Positions 2,377-30,024 of a DNA stretch of 35,660 bases are shown in pieces. The DNA comes from a virus: positions 1 to 35,660 of the IMG/VR virus record IMGVR_UViG_3300021960_007424. One strand, 5' to 3'. The stretch's first letter is position 1; every line of letters starts with the position of its first letter. Below the pieces are notes generated by a model. The model worked only from the letters and a program-made list of their open reading frames with translations, was not told the origin of the DNA and did no database searches. Position numbers and translations under genes: made by a program.

Positions 2377-4317
2377 TTATTTTTTAAAACTTTCTTTAAT
2401 TAATTTTTTTAAAAAGTTTGCGGTGATTTTTTGTTCAGCAAGGGCTGTCGCCTTTGTCGCCGTAACTCCAGAAGAGGATGCCTGAACGCCAGCTGTTACA
2501 CCGCTTTGCTGCGATGCTGCTCCGGTCGATGATTGTCCGTTAGGTGCGCCAAAAACTTTGTTTATAAGTTCATACATTGCTGCGTACCCTTCGACAGCTT
2601 TGTTAACGTCGTCAGCTTTCCCTCCGGTCAAATAGCCCTTCGTGCTTCTAGAAAATACTTCCATTTGATTTATAAGCTTGGGGATGTTTTGGTCCACTGC
2701 GTCCAAGGCAGCTTTTCCAAACTTATCAATTTCAGAAAGATCAGAGGCCAACTTTATTGTTCCAATTGGGTTTGAAACACTAGTGAACTTAATGCTACTA
2801 TCTACAGTATAGCTCGCGTTTGTCACTGTGAGATCGCCTTGTTTAATCCTTCCTTGGCCTTGGGTTCTTTCAATTTCGACAAAATATAACTCAACTTCAA
2901 CAATTTTATCTGAGGCGGCAGTACCAGATCCAGAGGAATCTTTTTTCAATCCCATAATGTAAACCATTTTTTTATTGCCCCAATTAACTGGTGTGGTTTG
3001 GTTTGTAGGTTTAATTAATTTTCCGTTGGCTGATGTATAGTCGAAATCATCCCAATCTGTTGAACCCGTTGCGGGAGCTGCGGCAAATCCGGGCATAACA
3101 TTTGACATTGTAGTAGTCGATTGAGAGAAAGAGTTGCTGCTCATGAGCTTTGCTGATCCTTTTGTATCCGGAGGAAGATTGTCGTCTGGACCGATGCCAA
3201 AAACAAAATCTGCTGCCCCCATCGCCGTTCCTTCTGTCGTTCCATTAACTAACTGAGCAAGAAAAGACTCAAATGCCCAACCTGCGGCTTTATCATCCAT
3301 GCGTTGTACAATTCTTGCCAAGCCATTAATTACGGCAATTGAACCCATGATCTCCCCGAGTTCCATGTTCGTCGTGTCTGGAGTGCTCTGCATGAGCCTA
3401 TCTGAATAACTATTGATAAATTTAATTCTTTCTTGTACTGAATTTGTTTGGCCGAGACCCATCGCATCAAAAGCCGCGACCACATAGGCAGGAACATTTT
3501 GTCTATTTGCGCCATATAAGTCTGACACATCAATTGATGGAGTAGAAGGCGTGACCTCTGCGGAGCTGGCAGCTGCTCTCTGGCTTAACATTGACTGAAG
3601 ATCTGCAGCATAAGGAGCGGTTGGGTCCGTGTTTGCAATTTGTCTAACTGCTTTAACTGCAGGTCTGAAAAGAGGGCTGGATCTATCCGATAGGATTGCT
3701 GCAAAATCTTCCCAGTCTAAGTTCGTTGTGTCTTCATTTAAAAGGTTCTCGGAAATTTTAGCCAAATCGCTAACGGCAGTTTGGGAGTTCAAATAAGATT
3801 GAAAGGTTCTTAGGATTGCCTTTTTAAGCTCATCTGGAATACTTTGCAAGTCAAAAGAAAATTGATTCTGAACTTGAGGCATGTTGGCCTTCTTGGGAAC
3901 CTTAACTTTATGTTGAGACTGACCAACTTGCACAGTTTTTCCATAGTTATTCGATCCAGTTGGAGGCTGCGTTGGTGGCTGTGTTGGAGGAATCGGAGGA
4001 GCAGGTGGAGGTCCTGAAGGTGGAGGTGGAGAGCCGAGGATATCCTTGAGATCGTCATCTAGATCATTCCCCAGTCTTACGTGATTAGAAATCGAGAGAT
4101 ATTCACCGAAATCTAATTTAAGACTCAACCTTGTTGCTTCTTTTTTAACAGCAGTGGCCAATTTATTTTTGTTTAAATTTTGATTACTATACTTGTCTTG
4201 TGCATAAGCAATAAGATCTTGCAATTGCTGCTTGGTTGGTCTTTTTTTGGCAGTAGCTTCACTCAACACTCCCTCAAGCAACTTTTTAAACTCATTTTTT
4301 CCAATTTTTTTAGTCAC
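2377..4317 (-). CDS. Large tagged protein with possible PD-(D/E)XK nuclease-like core
   Basis: A 646-aa protein with a GTG start at 4317, set by GGAGG 9 bases upstream; it overlaps the endolysin gene by 8 bases. The N-terminus (FKKLLEGVLSEA) carries the leader pattern shared by many proteins here, with two L-x-E sites, and the last 16 residues (ITANFLKKLIKESFKK) look like a second copy. Residues 96-120 are a Pro-rich linker. Residues 345-460 hold E350 in a helix (FESFLAQL), D370 at the end of AAD before a strand, D384-T-K386 and a later strand (MVYIMGLKK), an order that fits the PD-(D/E)XK fold. The C-terminal 50 residues before the tag are Ser/Gly/Ala-rich. The nuclease assignment is inference; a virion or head-internal protein is the likely role given tag and size. 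Confidence 0.8.
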   Translation of the reverse strand: MTKKIGKNEFKKLLEGVLSEATAKKRPTKQQLQDLIAYAQDKYSNQNLNKNKLATAVKKEATRLSLKLDFGEYLSISNHVRLGNDLDDDLKDILGSPPPPSGPPPAPPIPPTQPPTQPPTGSNNYGKTVQVGQSQHKVKVPKKANMPQVQNQFSFDLQSIPDELKKAILRTFQSYLNSQTAVSDLAKISENLLNEDTTNLDWEDFAAILSDRSSPLFRPAVKAVRQIANTDPTAPYAADLQSMLSQRAAASSAEVTPSTPSIDVSDLYGANRQNVPAYVVAAFDAMGLGQTNSVQERIKFINSYSDRLMQSTPDTTNMELGEIMGSIAVINGLARIVQRMDDKAAGWAFESFLAQLVNGTTEGTAMGAADFVFGIGPDDNLPPDTKGSAKLMSSNSFSQSTTTMSNVMPGFAAAPATGSTDWDDFDYTSANGKLIKPTNQTTPVNWGNKKMVYIMGLKKDSSGSGTAASDKIVEVELYFVEIERTQGQGRIKQGDLTVTNASYTVDSSIKFTSVSNPIGTIKLASDLSEIDKFGKAALDAVDQNIPKLINQMEVFSRSTKGYLTGGKADDVNKAVEGYAAMYELINKVFGAPNGQSSTGAASQQSGVTAGVQASSSGVTATKATALAEQKITANFLKKLIKESFKK

Positions 4318-7605: not shown

Positions 7606-7871
7606 TAGTCCTCGTCCTCCCATTCGGATTCAATCTCCTCTTCCTCTCCTGAGATGGTTGGCATCTCATTGATGAGGCGGCTCAAGTTTTCAAATTTTGT
7701 GAAAGAAAGTCGAAGATTGTTCATCATTGTTTCGGTTTCTTCTTTTGTCATCTCGCCATAATCTTCTTTTTCGTATCCTTCAAGGATAAAATTATACAAC
7801 TCACTTATTGCATACGCAGCGATGCCGAAGTCGTTTGCAGTAATTCTGCTATTTTCTGTTATTTGACTCAT
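7605..7871 (-). CDS. Small acidic protein of unknown function
   Basis: An 88-aa protein starting at the ATG that overlaps the stop of the upstream tagged gene as TAATG, with GAGGAA just upstream. Residues 15-70 are helical (AISELYNFILEGYEK and a second helix with LRLSFTKFENLSRLINEM), and the tail is nearly all Glu/Asp (about 13 of the last 17). No motif is recognised. It is translationally linked to dUTPase on one side and a tagged protein on the other. Confidence 0.72.
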   Translation of the reverse strand: MSQITENSRITANDFGIAAYAISELYNFILEGYEKEDYGEMTKEETETMMNNLRLSFTKFENLSRLINEMPTISGEEEEIESEWEDED

Positions 7872-8728
7872 TAGTTTCCTCTTTTTCTTTTTAGGTCTTC
7901 TAGGGTTCCAACATGTCCCGTATCTGAAAAGATGTGACATGTTAGACCGGTGGATTCTATATCATCGATAAGATTTTCTAAAGAATTTGCTTGCTTTGCT
8001 GCACGGATCAAATCTAGTGTCACAAAGCATCCAACAATTTCCCAATTGTCCAACAAGGTTTCCCCAGACCAGTTTGCATCACTTCTTCCAATTCCTGCCG
8101 CCATTTCTTCCAAAGAGTGAATAGGAGTTTCCATATCTCCTCTTTTCGCTATTCCAGAGCTGGCTTGGTGCTTGATAAGACCTTGTGGTAAACTGCTAAG
8201 CGTTTGAGAAGATACTGATCGACCAGAGACAAGAACAGGATATCCTTTTAGCAAAAGACCAGAGCCACCAGTTATAGCTTCGTGATTGCTGAAGCCAGTA
8301 TATCCGGATGGGATATTACTTGGGGCTCCAATCCATGCAACAGTAGAAAGCTGATTATTGTTTAGTGACGCATAATTGTTGATCCATTTTGAAATGGACT
8401 TTCTGTTTGCATCTCCGCTGCCTCCCAAAGAAGACTCCGCATAGCTAATATAGCCGAGACCATGAGCAATGGTTACTCCGTTAGCTTGACGGAACGCTTG
8501 AATCATTTCTTTTCCTTCAGGAGTTGATTGAAGTTTCTTGTGATACTTCTGTAGATTCACTCTGTCCTGTTCATACTCATCCGATGTTTGAAGTCCCACT
8601 TGTCTTCTAAGCCACCAATCCTCTGGTTTGTCAATGCCTTTTTCTTTCATTGCTTGTTCGTCTTCTGGGCTTAGTTCATATTCTTTCAGAACTTCTAAAA
8701 TAAGTCGCTTTAGGGTTGAAACTTCCAT
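7871..8728 (-). CDS. Tagged protein of unknown enzymatic fold (candidate packaged protein)
   Basis: A 285-aa protein from the ATG at 8728, with AGGAG 9 bases upstream; a TTG two codons earlier is the alternative. Its N-terminus (EVSTLKRLILEVLKEYE) is the common leader, with I-L-E and L-K-E. The body (about residues 80-285) contains conserved-looking blocks: SKWINNY, KGYPVLVSGR, SSGIAKRGDM and LLDNWEIVGCFVTLDL, followed by a short C-terminal domain (TGLTCHIFSDTGHVGTLEDL). These blocks recall a family I have seen beside similar leaders in marine phages, but I know no function for it. An ADP-ribosyltransferase-like role, by analogy with T4 Alt, was considered; the R-S-E signature is not clear. 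Confidence 0.8.
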   Translation of the reverse strand: MEVSTLKRLILEVLKEYELSPEDEQAMKEKGIDKPEDWWLRRQVGLQTSDEYEQDRVNLQKYHKKLQSTPEGKEMIQAFRQANGVTIAHGLGYISYAESSLGGSGDANRKSISKWINNYASLNNNQLSTVAWIGAPSNIPSGYTGFSNHEAITGGSGLLLKGYPVLVSGRSVSSQTLSSLPQGLIKHQASSGIAKRGDMETPIHSLEEMAAGIGRSDANWSGETLLDNWEIVGCFVTLDLIRAAKQANSLENLIDDIESTGLTCHIFSDTGHVGTLEDLKRKRGN

Positions 8729-8787
8729 AATCAATATCTCCTATAGATTTTGATGTAATTAGTTCTTACGATGATAAGATTGCTTGT

Positions 8788-17484: not shown

Positions 17485-17665
17485 CCACCTCCAAGTATAA
17501 TACTTGATTAGTAGAAGAAATTATGTTCCACTCAAAAGGACTGACGATTAGTGGCTGCACTCCAAGTTGTTCTAAGAATACCGCATTTCTTTCTCGCGCT
17601 TGGCAGAAAGAAGCAGCTCGAGGAACAAAATAGTTCTTACCTTTTATTACATATGCATATTTCAT
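17474..17665 (-). CDS. Small protein of unknown function
   Basis: A 63-aa protein whose ATG at 17665 overlaps the stop of the GIY-YIG gene (ATGA) with GGAGAACAA upstream. It opens with a strand (MKYAYVIKGKNYFVPR), continues with a helix (FCQARERNAVFLEQLGV) and ends with two strands. No known family. It overlaps the next gene by 11 bases. Confidence 0.65.
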   Translation of the reverse strand: MKYAYVIKGKNYFVPRAASFCQARERNAVFLEQLGVQPLIVSPFEWNIISSTNQVLYLEVDDV

Positions 17666-18648
17666 TTGTTCTCCGTTAACATTTTTAGTTGTTCTATCGT
17701 TAGAGCCAGATTATAAAGCTCGACTCCTTCGTCGATGTGTTGTTGAATGCTTCTTGCTTCTTCTAAAAGAAGATTGTTTTTGTCTTCGTCTTCGAACTCT
17801 TTTAGAACGTTCCACTCAAACGCGTCCTCTCCGTATTTATCAAAATCTTCTTGAAGAAGTTTGTTTGGGTGATAATTTCCTCGGAGGCCTGTGAGGTGTC
17901 CTTTCCACCTCAATTCTCCTCTTGTTGTTTCTCCAATGTAAACTTTGTTGTTTATTAGGTTTATTATTTGGTAAACGCAACTTGGTTGCTCTGCTTTTCT
18001 TTTTTCAAGATACCGAACTCTCTTTTCAGCTATCTTTTCTTTGTTTTCTTCATAATACTGGGCTTGTTGCTTTGCTATCTTTTCTTTGTTTTCTTCACGA
18101 TAATGGGCTTGTTGCTTTGCTATCTTTTCTTTGTTTTGAGCACGATACCGAGCGTTCTGCGCTGCTATCTTTTCTTTGTTTTCTTCATAATGCCGAGCTT
18201 TTTGTTCTGCTATCTTTTCTTTGTTTTCTTCACGATAATGGGCTTGTTGCTTTGCTATCTTTTCTTTGTTTTGAGCACGATACCGAGCGATCTTTTCTTT
18301 GTTTTCTTCACGATACCGAAAGGAGTATTCTGCTATCTTTTCTTTGTTTTCTTCATAATACCGAGCGTTTTTCTCTGCTATCTTTTCTTTGTTTTCGGAA
18401 CGATACCGAGCACCTTGCTTTGCTATCTTTTCTTTGTTTTGAGCACGATACCGAGCACCTTGCTTTGCTATCTTTTCTTTGTTTTCTTCATAATACCTAG
18501 CATTACGCTTTGCTATCTTTTCTTTGTTTTGAGCACGATATTGGGCTTTGCATGATTTGCATTGGCGGGTGTGGCCGTCTTTCGTACTCTTGTTTCTAGA
18601 GAACTCGACAAGTGGCTTTTGGATTCCGCATTTGCTACATTTTTTCAT
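17662..18648 (-). CDS. GIY-YIG nuclease with zinc finger and tandem-repeat linker
   Basis: A 328-aa protein in three parts. Residues 4-33 form a C-x2-C...C-x2-C zinc finger (C4, C7, C30, C33). Residues 41-216 are twelve copies of a 15-residue unit starting NKEKIA and rich in Lys, Glu, Arg and Tyr; the sixth copy is 4 residues short. Residues about 225-300 are a GIY-YIG nuclease domain: VYQI, then KVYIGETTRGELRWKGH and a closing KYGEDAFEWNVL segment. The layout resembles free-standing homing endonucleases with an extended linker between DNA-binding and cutting parts. It is embedded in an operon with gcvH, joined by ATGA overlaps. Cutting activity is inferred from motifs. Confidence 0.88.
   Translation of the reverse strand: MKKCSKCGIQKPLVEFSRNKSTKDGHTRQCKSCKAQYRAQNKEKIAKRNARYYEENKEKIAKQGARYRAQNKEKIAKQGARYRSENKEKIAEKNARYYEENKEKIAEYSFRYREENKEKIARYRAQNKEKIAKQQAHYREENKEKIAEQKARHYEENKEKIAAQNARYRAQNKEKIAKQQAHYREENKEKIAKQQAQYYEENKEKIAEKRVRYLEKRKAEQPSCVYQIINLINNKVYIGETTRGELRWKGHLTGLRGNYHPNKLLQEDFDKYGEDAFEWNVLKEFEDEDKNNLLLEEARSIQQHIDEGVELYNLALTIEQLKMLTENK
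18001..18528 (-). repeat. 45-bp tandem repeat array (12 units) inside the GIY-YIG gene
   Basis: Twelve in-frame units, eleven of 45 bp and one of 33 bp. Each contains a near-invariant AACAAAGAAAAGATAGC core (minus strand) encoding NKEKIA, with the rest more variable. Unit number is likely to vary between related phages. Confidence 0.92.
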
Positions 18649-20418: not shown

Positions 20419-20544
20419 TTAACAATCTTCTGGATTATCTGCTATCATAACGCAAGTATCGTAATAAGCGTCAATATTTTCCGTTGCTTGTTGAAAAAGG
20501 TCTGGCTCTACGGCACAGCATAAATAAGTTAGTATTAAAATCAT
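20419..20544 (-). CDS. 41-aa small protein with hydrophobic N-terminus
   Basis: An ATG at 20544 overlaps the stop of the tagged Tat gene (ATGA) with CCGGAGGACCA directly upstream. The peptide starts MILILTYLCCAVEPD, continues with an acidic helix (LFQQATENIDAYYDT) and ends CVMIADNPEDC. The short hydrophobic start with paired Cys could be a minimal signal or lipoprotein-like end, although no basic n-region is present. Its pairing with an exported-looking protein hints at a shared envelope location. Function unknown. Confidence 0.6.
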   Translation of the reverse strand: MILILTYLCCAVEPDLFQQATENIDAYYDTCVMIADNPEDC

Positions 20545-21350
20545 TGGTCCTCCGGTTTCCATGCTGGATTTGATACAATTGCGCCTCTGTCCATAGATGA
20601 CATGACTTTGTTGTATGCACTCAGCATTTCTTCATATTCTTGTTGTGTTATTTGTTCTCTTCTTAAAATTTGGTTTACTTCTTGTTGGCTTGTTGCTCCT
20701 CTAATATCTGCTTCTACTTGCAGCATCTGTTCCATCCAAACATCTAACGCTACAGTCCAAGCAAGTGGCAAGATTTTTACTTCGATATCTTGATCCCACC
20801 TGTTTTTCGAGCTAATTGTTGGAGCCATCTTCATGTTGTTTGGATCTGGGCTAATCTCTGTTCCCCAAAATGCTAACTGACCGAATACATGTTTGTAAGT
20901 CTGCTTCAGAGTCCAGTTGTCATAAAACGCTCTTGCTTCAGTTGGAGTATTCCCTAGAGTAAGAGATTCATCCATCTCGGCCCATAGTTCTCCGATATCA
21001 ACATAGGCATATGCTTGACCTGTTGCTGCGTCTGCTGCTGGTGCTATAGCATAATACTCTTTCCATGGAACATATCTCAAAGCATCCATGGCAGCTTTTG
21101 CATCTGCGGAGGGGACTGGTGGTTCTGTATTTTGAGCAGAAATCTCTTGATCTCTCGCAGAAGGTTGACCTAGACCTCCGATGGACACTCCCTGAAACTC
21201 ATCCGAATCCTCATCAGCATAGAGATCGCCAACTCTACCTGCTGCTGCAAGACCTGCGGCACCTGCCACGCCTTTCAAGAAGTCTCTTCTTGTAGCTTCT
21301 TCCATGACTTCTAGAATTAGTTTTTTAAGTTCAACGCTGTTAAGTTTCAT
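20541..21350 (-). CDS. Tagged protein whose leader runs directly into a Tat export signal
   Basis: A 269-aa protein. Residues 1-19 (MKLNSVELKKLILEVMEEA) are the common leader, with I-L-E cut-site pattern. Residues 20-40 (TRRDFLKGVAGAAGLAAAGR) match a twin-arginine signal: the TRRDFLK box, an Ala/Gly hydrophobic stretch, then a small-residue region. The rest is acidic and soluble: a linker (45-85), WKEYYAIAPAADAATGQAYAYVD (in two parts, 96-118), and helical segments (WTVALDVWMEQMLQVEADI; QEEYEEMLSAYNKVM-like end). No enzyme family is recognised. It has its own promoter. The arrangement suggests packaging, trimming to expose a Tat signal, and export in the new host; this is inference. Confidence 0.85.
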   Translation of the reverse strand: MKLNSVELKKLILEVMEEATRRDFLKGVAGAAGLAAAGRVGDLYADEDSDEFQGVSIGGLGQPSARDQEISAQNTEPPVPSADAKAAMDALRYVPWKEYYAIAPAADAATGQAYAYVDIGELWAEMDESLTLGNTPTEARAFYDNWTLKQTYKHVFGQLAFWGTEISPDPNNMKMAPTISSKNRWDQDIEVKILPLAWTVALDVWMEQMLQVEADIRGATSQQEVNQILRREQITQQEYEEMLSAYNKVMSSMDRGAIVSNPAWKPEDQ

Positions 21351-22401: not shown

Positions 22402-23022
22402 TTATGGTAATGAAGTTTTTGGTAGATTATCTAAGCCTAAATCCATGTAAAGCGAGTTCATCAATTCGAAAAGATCTTCGGCTTGTAGCGTGTAATAGCT
22501 TAAGACTTCCGTTAAATTGTCCGCAAGGTTTTGCCCTTCGATTATCATTAGTTCGTCGACCTCCACTCCGGTAATCCCGGCAGATTTCATTACAAATGAA
22601 AAATGTCCTTCGCGAACAAGATTTAATTCCATGGTGATAATTTTGGGAGAAAATGTTTCTGCGAAAAGGTCTGACTTATACATCGGGAGGCTTTGCCTGA
22701 TCTTGCTGGTTGATTGAGATTCTCCTGTCAAAACAAGGAATCTCCAAGGTTTGGCAATTTCGTCTCCGAGTTGAACTTCGTTCCCGTCGAGTTGTTCAAA
22801 AGCATTTTCGATTGTAAAGTTCATCATCCAATGACCTCTGTCGTCATAAAAGGAAATTAGTTTCTCTAGCGTTTCAGGGTCGCTACTAACAAAAATGGTA
22901 TCGGAAAGTTTTTCCAAGTAATTTCCCACCCTATTCGATCTTTTTGTCTTTGATTTTTCGCTCAAAACATAAGAAAGCTCTTCTTGAATAATTCTTCGTA
23001 AATCTTGATTTGTAAGTTTCAC
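22402..23022 (-). CDS. Tagged protein of unknown function
   Basis: A 206-aa protein from a GTG at 23022 that overlaps the upstream TGA (GTGA) and follows AAAGGAAAGAAGAA; the open frame begins 27 codons earlier, but those residues are the upstream gene in another frame. The N-terminus (LTNQDLRRIIQEELSYVLSE) is a textbook copy of the leader, with I-Q-E and L-S-E. The remainder is alpha/beta with DRGHWMMNFTIENAF, AKPWRFLVLTGES and a helical end (ADNLTEVLSYYTLQAEDLFE). No known family is recognised. It sits immediately after another tagged gene. Confidence 0.8.
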   Translation of the reverse strand: MKLTNQDLRRIIQEELSYVLSEKSKTKRSNRVGNYLEKLSDTIFVSSDPETLEKLISFYDDRGHWMMNFTIENAFEQLDGNEVQLGDEIAKPWRFLVLTGESQSTSKIRQSLPMYKSDLFAETFSPKIITMELNLVREGHFSFVMKSAGITGVEVDELMIIEGQNLADNLTEVLSYYTLQAEDLFELMNSLYMDLGLDNLPKTSLP

Positions 23023-23972
23023 TTCTTCTTTCCTTTCTTTGCCTTCTTGCCCCAAGATGAGCCTTTGCCTCTCTCCTTGCACGCACCGGGTGTTGGGCGG
23101 CATGCAGGATACTTCTTTCTCTTTTCTCCATCAGAGCGGCCACATGATTTGTAGCCACCTTTGCCGTCAGGAGCATTGCAATCGACCCAGCCGCCTTTCT
23201 TTCCTTTGGCTCCTTTTCGCTTGAACCAATCTCGGAGATTGCCCTCTTTACTTGACTCAGTTCCCGCTTTCTTCTTTTTCTTTTTACGTTTTTTTTCGTC
23301 CAGCACAATGCGCTCTTTGCGAGAACCCTTTTGGATTGTCACAGTTGATACTTCGCTTATACTTGACAGACCATTTCTTTTTTTTTTCTCATCTAACTTT
23401 GGACCTTTGCACATTTCTTCAGCTTCTTTCTTGCTTAAACCTTTTGGTCTATCAGCTCCTTGTTCTGCTTTTGCGCACATAAATCTTCTTTGTTTGTCTG
23501 AATAAACTTCTTCTATACCTGCTAACTTATCATAATACTCTGGATCTTCATATACATGCTCCATTGCAATCTCGTGTGCAATTTCTTCGCTATCTGTATG
23601 TTCCATTTCAACCTTGATGCCTTTTGCAACTTGCTTTTCAATTTCATCAACAGATACATCGTGCATTTTTGCCAGTTGCTTATGTTGATCTTCCATTGAT
23701 CCTTTCAATTTATCTCCGAGACCACCTGGGATTAAATCTTCATTTGTCTTATTACCCCAGTTTTTGGCTCCAACTTTGCGACATTTCACGAGAGCACCAG
23801 AAGCATAAGCAGAAGGCCATACATCATAACGAGAACGAACCTTGTGGTAGCATGCGTCCTTCTTGCCTTTCTTCTTTTTCTTCTTCTTTTTTTTCTTTTT
23901 GCGTTTTTCATCAAGGACGGCGTTCAGCTCTTCCTTGATGATTTGTCGCAACTCCTCTTGTGTAATTTGCAT
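23019..23972 (-). CDS. Tagged, lysine-rich multi-domain protein (DUF5661-like and DUF5872-like parts)
   Basis: A 317-aa protein. Leader at 1-22 (LRQIIKEELNAVLDE, with I-K-E and L-D-E). A poly-Lys tract follows (23-39). Residues 41-73 hold CYHKVRSRYDVWPSAYASG and VKCRKVGAKNWG. Residues 82-150 resemble DUF5661 (VEMEHTDSEEIAHEIAMEH, YEDPEYYDKL). Residues 158-190 include SDKQRRFMCAKA and KKEAEEMC. A second Lys tract lies at 226-235. Residues 245-299 match DUF5872 (LRDWFKRKG, GGWVDCNAPDGKGG, YPACRPTPGAC). The very basic character suggests DNA contact in the head. Family names are by memory of motif patterns. Confidence 0.87.
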   Translation of the reverse strand: MQITQEELRQIIKEELNAVLDEKRKKKKKKKKKKKGKKDACYHKVRSRYDVWPSAYASGALVKCRKVGAKNWGNKTNEDLIPGGLGDKLKGSMEDQHKQLAKMHDVSVDEIEKQVAKGIKVEMEHTDSEEIAHEIAMEHVYEDPEYYDKLAGIEEVYSDKQRRFMCAKAEQGADRPKGLSKKEAEEMCKGPKLDEKKKRNGLSSISEVSTVTIQKGSRKERIVLDEKKRKKKKKKAGTESSKEGNLRDWFKRKGAKGKKGGWVDCNAPDGKGGYKSCGRSDGEKRKKYPACRPTPGACKERGKGSSWGKKAKKGKKK

Positions 23973-28109: not shown

Positions 28110-28811
28110 CTAAGATCTTCTTTTTCTATATCCGGCAAATTCAGATGGAGACCCCATGCTATTGACAATGTCCTCAATCTCTTGATCTGACATAGGAATT
28201 TCTGGCTTGCCGTAAAGTGGGATCAGAATCTTTCCTTCTTCTCCCATGCCGGGAATGTATGAGTAGTTATCGTCCACACTTCTCAAATCATCAGAATCCA
28301 TTACGTCTGATGTTGCTGATGACCATTCATCTGAACCGAAGCCGTGATCTTCATCGTGATCCATTTTGTACATTTGGAATTCCATGGAGTGTTCTCCAGC
28401 AAGTCCGCCTTCGGGATCCATAGAAAGACCTCCTTCTGCATCGCGTGATGGATCAAACTGCTTACGTCCAAATACGAAGCCCCATTGCTTGTATTTTCTG
28501 TTTAGCTCGTCCATGTCTTCAAGGCGAGCGTTCTTGATGATGACTGACTTTTCCGTATGGCCCTCGAAGATCCCACCAATACGTTCAAATTGATAACCCA
28601 TCTGTCTCAAATCTGACTCAAGACCTGCTTGCAATTGATCATTGACACCTGCGCCGACTGCTGAAGCCATTGGGTTTTGTCCAGACATGATTGCAACGGT
28701 TTGAACCTGTGGATCTTGTCCTCGCAGCATTTTCATGATGCGCTCTTTCTTACCTTCTTCCTGAAGGACTTCGTTAATCAATTTTTTCAATTTAAGTGTT
28801 GTTAGTTTCAT
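28110..28811 (-). CDS. Tagged protein with DUF3293-like core
   Basis: A 233-aa protein. Leader MKLTTLKLKKLINEVLQEE has I-N-E and L-Q-E. Residues 60-115 (LESDLRQMGYQFERIGGIFE, KSVIIKN and NRKYKQWGFVFGRK) resemble DUF3293, a small domain common in phages. The centre is Gly/Met/Asp-rich, and the end (SPSEFAGYRKRRS) is basic. AAGGGATTATAAA precedes the ATG, immediately after the tagged kinase-like gene. Function unknown. Confidence 0.8.
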   Translation of the reverse strand: MKLTTLKLKKLINEVLQEEGKKERIMKMLRGQDPQVQTVAIMSGQNPMASAVGAGVNDQLQAGLESDLRQMGYQFERIGGIFEGHTEKSVIIKNARLEDMDELNRKYKQWGFVFGRKQFDPSRDAEGGLSMDPEGGLAGEHSMEFQMYKMDHDEDHGFGSDEWSSATSDVMDSDDLRSVDDNYSYIPGMGEEGKILIPLYGKPEIPMSDQEIEDIVNSMGSPSEFAGYRKRRS

Positions 28812-28812
28812 T

Positions 28813-29685
28813 TTATAATCCCTTAATGACTCTTAATGTCTCGTTACAATGGTCAAGAACTTTTACATGCCTTGACTCTAAGACACTTTTAATTTCTTCA
28901 ACTTCTCGATCCCATGCCGATGCTTCTTCGTTCAAGCCAGCATTTATCATTTCCTTCTTCGCTTCTTCATGAACTTCATCAATTCTAGCAGAAATTTGTG
29001 GCCAATCCACTGTTAGGAATTCAGAACATGCTTTTTGCATATTCATCTTTGACATAAGTCGACCCGCTCCTCTCTCGTTTGGATCTAACATTCTTGGAAT
29101 GTCTCCACCTCTCGGAGAGAATCTACGGCCTTTTCTTGCTCCCATGGCACGGAATGTCATGGAGCCACCGGGATCGATTCGAGTTGCTGTATTGTCGTCT
29201 GTATTGACAACAAAGTTGTCTAGATTTGCCACATCATGGTTTGCCAAAAAGACATCCACCATGGCTCCACCAGAAACAGATTCTGCCCAAGAACTTGGAG
29301 GATTAGAGTTTACAACATTTCCACCTGCGACGCCTGTGGCTGCTTGAGTAGCAAGGCCAAGTTGTCTATTGGCTGGATCAGACACTAGATGAACTTGGCT
29401 TGGTACCGCTGAATCAGGATAAAGTTGGTAAATTTTGTAAGCAAGATATTCTACTGCGATTTGTAGAGTTTTATCTTCCTTATTCTCGAAGTCCCAAGAA
29501 TCAGAAACCTTCAAGTAGAACTGGTCATCACCAATCATACACGTTCTCAAAAAGTGAGTAGATCCGAAGCATCTGTCAAGATTGGAGAGTTCTCCAATAT
29601 CCATTTCATCTAGCTGTTGGATTCGATCTGCTTCTTCTAAGACCTCTAAAATCAAGCTTCTCAGCTTATCACCCGTTAACCTCAT
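28813..29685 (-). CDS. Tagged HipA/PI-kinase-like protein (candidate packaged kinase)
   Basis: A 290-aa protein from the ATG at 29685, chosen because GGGAG lies 9 bases upstream and the leader (LTGDKLRSLILEVLEEA, with I-L-E and L-E-E) begins there; the open frame extends 17 codons further. The body looks like an atypical kinase: FYLKV with K59 as ATP lysine, AVEYLA with E79, the catalytic loop FLANHDVANLDNFVV with D151 and N154/N157, and a metal-binding IDPGGSM with D171. This is the pattern of HipA/phosphoinositide-kinase-like proteins. If packed and injected it could phosphorylate host proteins at the start of infection. Kinase fold is a motif-level call. Confidence 0.82.
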   Translation of the reverse strand: MRLTGDKLRSLILEVLEEADRIQQLDEMDIGELSNLDRCFGSTHFLRTCMIGDDQFYLKVSDSWDFENKEDKTLQIAVEYLAYKIYQLYPDSAVPSQVHLVSDPANRQLGLATQAATGVAGGNVVNSNPPSSWAESVSGGAMVDVFLANHDVANLDNFVVNTDDNTATRIDPGGSMTFRAMGARKGRRFSPRGGDIPRMLDPNERGAGRLMSKMNMQKACSEFLTVDWPQISARIDEVHEEAKKEMINAGLNEEASAWDREVEEIKSVLESRHVKVLDHCNETLRVIKGL

Positions 29686-29959
29686 CAACAATTCTCCCGT
29701 AGACATAGTTTTCTTGAACAAGGTAAATAGTGTCAAGATTCGCTTTTATGTCCTGTAGGGTTGTTCTATCAACAATGATTTTGTCTCCGACATCTAACGG
29801 AATTGAGCAATCACATGCCATAGCAAGGATTTTGCAAGTGACATAAGGTGATTGTGGTGGCCTGTATTCATCAGGCATAATAAAGAGAGGAGCATCCTCG
29901 GATGTCTCTTCTTCAATTAGTTCCACCCAAAGGTGGCGGTTGTGTGGTTCAAATTGCAT
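29669..29959 (-). CDS. GroES-like co-chaperonin
   Basis: A 96-aa protein of Cpn10 length. The core follows the fold: NRHLWVELIEEE at the start, a loop (TSEDAPLFIMPDEY) in the place of the GroEL-binding mobile loop, VTCKILAM, VGDKIIVDRT, and YLVQENYVYGRIVDE at the end. Sequence identity to host GroES looks low, as with T4 gp31, which also replaces GroES for capsid folding. GGAGGTAAT precedes the ATG. It heads the long operon, while groEL is 27 kb away in its own unit. Partnering with the phage GroEL is inferred. Confidence 0.72.
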   Translation of the reverse strand: MQFEPHNRHLWVELIEEETSEDAPLFIMPDEYRPPQSPYVTCKILAMACDCSIPLDVGDKIIVDRTTLQDIKANLDTIYLVQENYVYGRIVDEVNG

Positions 29960-29977: not shown

Positions 29978-30010
29978 AAAACGTGTTACACATATAGTAT
30001 AACACGTTTT
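29978..30010 (-). terminator. Intrinsic terminator after the H1-like gene, overlapping the next promoter
   Basis: AAAACGTGTTA pairs with TAACACGTTTT (11 bp) around an 11-base loop, ending in a run of eight T on the minus strand. The -10 at 29996-30001 lies in the loop and first arm. Confidence 0.8.
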
Positions 30011-30024
30011 CGGGGGTTTGTCAA
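29996..30024 (-). promoter_or_regulatory. Sigma70-type promoter for the long 30.0-21.4 kb operon
   Basis: TTGACA at 30024-30019, 17-base spacer ending GTGT, TATACT at 30001-29996. The promoter is nested in a terminator hairpin. Confidence 0.87.

What the first reader, a model, noticed from the sequence alone, without database searches (positions are those of the whole stretch)
28813..29685. Candidate head-packaged protein kinase
After the leader, the protein shows K59 (FYLKV), E79, an ANHDVANLDN catalytic loop and IDPGGSM, the pattern of HipA/phosphoinositide-kinase-like enzymes. T4 Alt is a packed and injected ADP-ribosyltransferase; this would be an injected kinase that could modify host proteins before any phage gene is expressed.
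Basis: partly seen in the sequence, partly recalled or inferred. Interest (0 to 1): 0.8.

Follow-up and report, generated by a model that had tools for sequence, protein, structure and literature searches.

The report
Phage kinase with capsid-targeting-like leader
A T4-related phage encodes a small kinase of the CtkA/PI4K/HipA fold whose start carries a tag shared with other proteins of the same phage, so it is probably packed into the virus head and delivered into the bacterium with the DNA to modify host proteins, although neither packing nor activity has been shown by experiment.

Summary
In detail: 28813-29685(-) encodes 290 aa with K59, E79, NHD151..N157 and D171PGG. All five catalytic positions are conserved across a 70-member family. 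The AlphaFold model (pLDDT 91, pTM 0.86) is a complete kinase fold, closest to Helicobacter CtkA (Z 16.5, 225 residues), then PI4KII and HipA. dN/dS is about 0.06, so an active enzyme is likely.

Packaging has good indirect support. (1) Most relatives are domains of giant phage proteins, several fused to the MuF head protein and/or an ADP-ribosyltransferase; one is annotated particle-associated. (2) Stand-alone orthologues (273-300 aa) begin with short leaders shared by other proteins of their own phage. All four large contigs encode T4-type gp23 and prohead protease gp21, and the leaders contain the (L/I)xE type of site. (3) Other proteins with such leaders are ART-PolyVal, ART+GNAT and zeta-toxin-like enzymes.

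Against: the gene sits among nucleotide-metabolism genes behind a sigma70-like promoter, no late promoter is visible, and there is no virion proteomics.

Verdict: a stand-alone variant of a known kind (polyvalent-protein-type injected effector). Packaging about 0.65, active kinase about 0.8, substrate unknown.

The parts
28813..29685 (-). Kinase gene, 290 aa, ATG start at 29685
   Evidence: ORF; AF2 model pLDDT 91.1, pTM 0.86; CtkA Z 16.5; dN/dS 0.05-0.07
29632..29685 (-). Leader MRLTGDKLRSLILEVLEE (residues 1-18; helix 5-26 in the model); candidate capsid-targeting propeptide with (L/I)xE sites at ILE14 and LEE18
   Evidence: Shared with other window proteins and with orthologues
29557..29565 (-). 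GST (residues 41-43), glycine-rich-loop position; GS(N/T) in the family
   Evidence: G41, S42 at least 90% conserved; low model confidence at 39-43
29509..29511 (-). K59, ATP-binding lysine on strand 54-60
   Evidence: At least 90% conserved; lies in the stretch aligned with the HipA N-lobe
29449..29451 (-). E79 on helix 71-86 (alpha-C)
   Evidence: At least 90% conserved
29215..29241 (-). Catalytic loop NHDVANLDN (residues 149-157): D151 and N157
   Evidence: N149, D151, N157 invariant
29164..29175 (-). D171-P-G-G174, DFG-equivalent metal-binding site
   Evidence: D171, G173, G174 invariant
28110..28811 (-). Downstream DUF3293 gene, also with the leader (MKLTTLKLKKLINEVLQE)
   Evidence: PF11697 E 2.7e-8; leader; neighbour kept in G001
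29669..29959 (-). Upstream GroES-like gene, overlaps the kinase start by 17 bases
   Evidence: phrog_3188 E 3.5e-4
29996..30024 (-). Sigma70-like promoter match in front of the GroES-like gene and kinase (11 of 12; inside a 15-bp stem-loop)
   Evidence: Consensus scan only
7871..8734 (-). Leader-bearing protein of unknown function (MEVSTLKRLILEVLKE, ATG at 8728)
   Evidence: no family
20541..21350 (-). Leader-bearing protein (MKLNSVELKKLILEVMEE) followed by a Tat-like signal
   Evidence: PF10518 E 0.0018, below cut-off
22402..23103 (-). Leader-bearing protein (VKLTNQDLRRIIQEEL, about 28 residues into the called ORF)
23019..23972 (-). Leader-bearing protein (MQITQEELRQIIKEEL), DUF5661

Best explanation
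The gene encodes an active protein kinase of the CtkA/PI4KII/HipA fold that T4-like phages carry as stand-alone, head-packaged cargo. Proposed course: (a) the ~18-residue leader recruits the protein to the prohead core, as capsid-targeting sequences do in T4; (b) a gp21-type prohead protease removes the leader after an (L/I)xE site (ILE14 or LEE18); (c) the mature kinase of about 272-276 aa stays in the head and is ejected with the DNA; (d) in the cell it phosphorylates host proteins, most likely on Ser/Thr, to favour take-over or blunt defence, as Alt does by ADP-ribosylation. Shown here: fold (predicted), conserved catalytic residues, purifying selection, shared leaders, gp21 and gp23 in the four large relatives, fusion of relatives to MuF and ART. 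Inferred: steps a-d and kinase activity itself.
For: Kinase: AF2 pLDDT 91, pTM 0.86, kinase order of elements; CtkA Z 16.5/225 aligned, PI4KII 13.7, HipA 11.9; K, E, D, N, D conserved in 70 sequences; HipA profile aligns with the N-lobe, E 6.8e-6; 27 of 70 members weakly match HipA_C; dN/dS 0.05-0.07. Packaging: relatives fused to MuF and/or ART, next to portal or capsid protease, one annotated 'phage particle associated protein'; leader on 16/278 N-termini against 0/1097 internal stretches; the kinase leader resembles N-termini of its own phage; gp23 and gp21 in G001, G003, G004, G005; leader protein directly upstream of gp21 in G001; leaders on ART-PolyVal/GNAT and zeta-toxin-like proteins; T4 precedent for leader, gp21 cleavage and Alt ejection.
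Against: No virion proteomics for any leader protein here. The kinase lies with GroES-like, DUF3293 and ThyX genes, behind a sigma70-like promoter; no T4-type late promoter precedes a window ORF. The window record has no gp23 or gp21 of its own (it is a fragment). PWM seeds were taken from the hits, and the LKxLIxE leaders are not strictly phage-specific. Substrate and activity untested; the PI4KII likeness allows a non-protein substrate.
Confidence: 0.5

Rival explanations
1. A kinase made after infection and not packaged: expressed with the GroES-like gene from a host-type promoter and acting on host proteins like T7 gp0.7; the leader has some other role, such as docking to a phage or host partner.
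For: Gene order GroES-like/kinase/DUF3293/ThyX kept in G001; sigma70-like promoter upstream; no late promoter seen.
Against: Leaders differ between phages yet match the other leader proteins of the same phage; leader-bearing set includes ART-PolyVal, ART-GNAT and zeta-like effectors; relatives sit in head proteins. T4 ipI also lies outside the head gene cluster.
Confidence: 0.25
2. A packaged enzyme of this fold that is not a protein kinase: it phosphorylates a lipid or small molecule, transfers AMP, or is a pseudokinase.
For: PI4KII is the second-best solved match, Z 13.7; phage relatives are annotated PI3/4-kinase-like; folds do not give substrates.
Against: All catalytic residues kept, against a pseudokinase; CtkA and HipA, both protein kinases, are among the closest folds (CtkA per PMC5536186).
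Confidence: 0.2
3. A HipA-type toxin or superinfection-immunity kinase acting in cis in the infected cell.
For: HipA-like fold; Gratiaviridae carry a HipA-family kinase between portal and capsid genes, proposed to serve immunity (PMC8008677).
Against: No HipB-like partner or HTH gene adjacent; no N-terminal HipA domain; leader and cargo-type relatives instead.
Confidence: 0.05

Closest known systems
CtkA (JHP940), Helicobacter pylori cell-translocating Ser/Thr kinase
   Same: Closest solved fold: Z 16.5, rmsd 3.2, 225 aligned; a delivered kinase encoded on a mobile element (PMC5536186)
   Different: 13% identity; acts on human cells and depends on a type IV secretion system; no phage leader
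HipA kinases (PF07804)
   Same: Fold (Z 11.9) and N-lobe profile match, E 6.8e-6
   Different: No HipB partner and no HipA N-terminal domain; C-lobe does not align by sequence; window protein has no Pfam hit
Kinase domains in phage polyvalent/MuF proteins
   Same: Same domain family by sequence
   Different: There it is one module of proteins that mostly exceed 500 aa (95 of 101); here it stands alone with its own leader
T4 Alt and internal proteins IPI-III
   Same: Works like: leader-directed, gp21-processed head proteins ejected with DNA; T4 IPI begins MKTFKEFT, similar to G005 MISFKxFLxE
   Different: Alt is an ADP-ribosyltransferase; the window's leader sequence differs from T4's; packaging not shown here
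Gratiaviridae HipA-family kinase
   Same: Phage HipA-like kinase between portal and capsid genes (PMC8008677)
   Different: Proposed for superinfection immunity; not compared by sequence here
T7 gp0.7 protein kinase
   Same: Works like: phage kinase that modifies host proteins early (literature)
   Different: Made after infection rather than packaged; not compared here

Membership tests
Kinase fold, CtkA/PI4KII/HipA branch | Two-lobed kinase fold | tested here: met
   AF2 pTM 0.86; Z 16.5 to CtkA over 225 residues, others lower
Kinase fold, CtkA/PI4KII/HipA branch | Conserved Lys, Glu, catalytic Asp, Asn and metal-binding Asp | tested here: met
   K59, E79, D151, N157, D171 at least 90% conserved or invariant
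Kinase fold, CtkA/PI4KII/HipA branch | Phosphotransfer activity | not testable with these tools
   Needs a kinase assay
HipA toxin family (type II TA) | HipA sequence profile match | tested here: inconclusive
   N-lobe only, E 6.8e-6; HipA_C weak in 27 of 70 relatives, none for the window protein
HipA toxin family (type II TA) | Adjacent HipB antitoxin and N-terminal HipA domain | tested here: not met
   Neighbours are GroES-like and DUF3293; no such domain in the protein
Polyvalent-protein kinase group of Iyer et al. 2017 | Insert between conserved catalytic His and Asp; loss of the C-terminal subdomain | tested here: inconclusive
   The position before D151 is His here but Trp in nearly all relatives; C-terminal helices are present; their alignment was not available
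Polyvalent proteins | Two or more unlike domains in one polypeptide | tested here: not met
   Leader plus one kinase domain only
Head-packaged cargo with capsid-targeting leader (T4 IP/Alt type) | N-terminal leader shared with other proteins of the phage | tested here: met
Head-packaged cargo with capsid-targeting leader (T4 IP/Alt type) | gp21-type prohead protease in the phage | tested here: met
   Four large relatives have gp21 and gp23; the window itself is a fragment without them
Head-packaged cargo with capsid-targeting leader (T4 IP/Alt type) | Presence in virions and cleavage after (L/I)xE | not testable with these tools
   Needs virion mass spectrometry
Head-packaged cargo with capsid-targeting leader (T4 IP/Alt type) | Late expression | tested here: inconclusive
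   No T4-type late promoter, sigma70-like promoter upstream; consensus scans only

The most novel reading that the evidence does not exclude
In large T4-like phages, N-terminal leaders mark an arsenal of head-packaged effectors (CtkA-like kinase, ART-PolyVal and ART-GNAT enzymes, zeta-toxin-like kinase, a protein whose Tat-like signal would be exposed by leader cleavage). Enzymes that other phages fuse into giant polyvalent proteins are here separate cargoes, each with its own capsid ticket. The kinase would be a stand-alone injected phage kinase, and the leaders would let the injected proteome be read from sequence.
Probability: 0.5. Interest if true: 0.8.

Novelty: new variant of a known kind. 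Interest (0 to 1): 0.6.

Why it matters
The best-known packaged modifier, T4 Alt, uses ADP-ribosylation. A packaged kinase would add phosphorylation to what a phage can do to its host before any of its genes is expressed. If the leaders are targeting signals, the proteins that large uncultured phages inject could be listed from sequence alone, and most of those proteins have no known function.

Tried and rejected
No Pfam, NCBIfam or meaningful PHROG hit for the window protein and no PDB sequence match for protein or profile. A single HipA sequence against the family profile was weak; a 13-sequence HipA profile gave an N-lobe match, and the C-lobe still did not align. A residue-by-residue comparison with CtkA was not made: that effector's sequence was neither fetched nor typed. 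T4 late promoters (TATAAATA) were sought and not found in front of window ORFs. The leader alone found one weak hit in annotated phages. Homologues of the leader protein 7871-8728 were not found in viral contigs, so the second structure job was not used. No paper on phage fHe-Yen8-01 was found, so its particle-associated label rests on the GenBank note. The plasmid search gave two weak matches. A chance motif match is rejected by the conservation and the fold. Membership in the kinase group of Iyer et al. was not adopted because its stated features were not seen.

Full report
Observation. The ORF at 28813-29685 on the minus strand is real. It starts at ATG 29685 and gives 290 residues. The window is a 35,660-base virus record with genes of a large phage: DNA polymerase III alpha, ribonucleotide reductase, ThyX, DnaB-like helicase, 5'-3' exonuclease, thioredoxin, GroEL.

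Relatives. Pfam, NCBIfam and PDB sequences gave nothing for the protein itself, and PHROGs only a meaningless match. tblastn against annotated phages found the domain in 17 records, mostly inside very large proteins. Examples are a 2146-aa protein of Yersinia phage fHe-Yen8-01 annotated 'ADP-ribosyltransferase toxin' and 'phage particle associated protein', proteins directly after the portal gene in Gordonia phages, and a protein two genes before a capsid maturation protease. An alignment of these recovered 386 relatives among viral contigs and 44 in genome contigs. Of 101 distinct ORFs extracted, 95 have 500 residues or more. Of eight examined with Pfam, six have a MuF head-protein domain above the curated cut-off, one has a weaker MuF match, and three have an ART domain. 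Those eight were chosen partly because they looked MuF-like; a motif count over the 101 finds the MuF signature in only seven, so MuF fusion is a recurrent minority arrangement.

Kinase. In 70 aligned sequences D151, N157 and D171 are invariant and K59 and E79 at least 90% conserved. The AlphaFold2 model is confident (mean pLDDT 91.1, pTM 0.86) and has the kinase order of elements. The closest solved structures are CtkA (Z 16.5, rmsd 3.2, 225 aligned), then PI4KII (13.7) and HipA (11.9), with ordinary eukaryotic kinases near 9. Phage proteins top the viral library, among them a portal-annotated protein and ADP-ribosyltransferases. Twenty-seven of 70 members weakly match Pfam HipA_C. A HipA profile aligns with the N-lobe at E 6.8e-6 for the single comparison. 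dN/dS between close pairs is 0.05-0.07. CtkA is a Ser/Thr and Tyr kinase (PMC5536186), which makes protein phosphorylation the best guess; the PI4KII likeness leaves room for other substrates.

Leader. The close orthologues (48-55% identical) are stand-alone proteins of about 290-300 aa that carry M(R/K)LT...LK(S/T/G)LI(L/M)E at or near the start. A motif model built from 14 such N-termini scores 16 of 278 N-termini and 0 of 1097 internal stretches in the window and in G001, the 184-kb contig of relative L013. The seeds are among the 16, so the count is not an unbiased estimate, but the contrast is large. The more distant stand-alone relatives carry other leaders. In G005 the kinase begins MKSFKSYLMEM, and about 14 further proteins begin with the MISFKxFLxE pattern, close in style to T4 IPI, MKTFKEFT. 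In G003 and G004 the kinase leader resembles other N-termini of the same phage (13/347 and 12/346, against 3/537 and 1/547 internal stretches). G001, G003, G004 and G005 all encode gp23 and a gp21-type protease. In G001 a leader protein lies directly upstream of gp21, where T4 has gp67 and gp68. In T4 the first ten residues of an internal protein suffice for packaging and are removed by gp21; gp21-type proteases cut after glutamate in a short motif (PMC9026906, PMC9958956, PMC5694885). Leader-bearing proteins in the relatives include an ART-PolyVal fused to a GNAT, another ART-PolyVal and a zeta-toxin-like kinase. ART and GNAT domains are known classes in polyvalent proteins (PMC5512222).

Counter-evidence. 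The kinase gene overlaps a GroES-like gene and is followed by DUF3293 and ThyX, an order kept in G001. A sigma70-like promoter match lies upstream, and no T4-type late promoter precedes any window ORF. T4 ipI is likewise outside the head cluster, so position does not decide. Leader similarity is not strictly phage-specific: the window and G001 leaders also match N-termini in G003 and G004. Nothing here was observed in a virion except the depositors' note on the Yersinia phage protein.

Judgement. The kinase fold is close to certain (0.95), activity likely (0.8), packaging more likely than not (0.65), and host-protein phosphorylation plausible (0.55). It is a stand-alone variant of the injected-effector theme of polyvalent proteins and T4 Alt. 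A HipA-family kinase in phages has been reported before (PMC8008677), so the kinase alone is not unprecedented; the leader and the cargo set are the newer part.

Noticed in passing
20541-21350 (-): Leader MKLNSVELKKLILEVMEE is followed directly by a Tat-like signal (ATRRDFLKGVAGAAGLAAAG; PF10518 E 0.0018, below cut-off). Removal of the leader would expose it, which would suggest a packaged protein exported by the host.
   Followed up: partly
2377-4317 (-): Leader-like stretches at both ends (KIGKNEFKKLLEGVLSE and C-terminal KITANFLKKLIKESFKK), reminiscent of T4 Alt, which is cut at both ends; no family hit.
   Followed up: partly
L163:1668-2720 and L163:5190-6008 (G005): Proteins with the MISFKxFLxE leader carry ART-PolyVal domains, one fused to a GNAT acetyltransferase.
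   Followed up: partly
L180:9095-10360 and L180:10357-11475 (G003): Tandem paralogues beside the kinase with leader MTHLLRSLIRE and a VYHGT...GKGLY pattern that looks ART-like by eye; Pfam finds no ART.
   Followed up: partly
L190 (G004:136501-156500): At least seven neighbouring proteins begin MKLxxILFE or similar, another leader type with an LxE ending.
   Followed up: no
29669-29959 (-): GroES-like protein (phrog_3188) in the same record as a GroEL (737-2323).
   Followed up: no
17662-18648 (-): Protein with many near-identical RAQNKEKIAK..ARYYEENKEKIA repeats followed by a stretch that looks GIY-YIG-like (VYQIINLINNKVYIGE).
   Followed up: no
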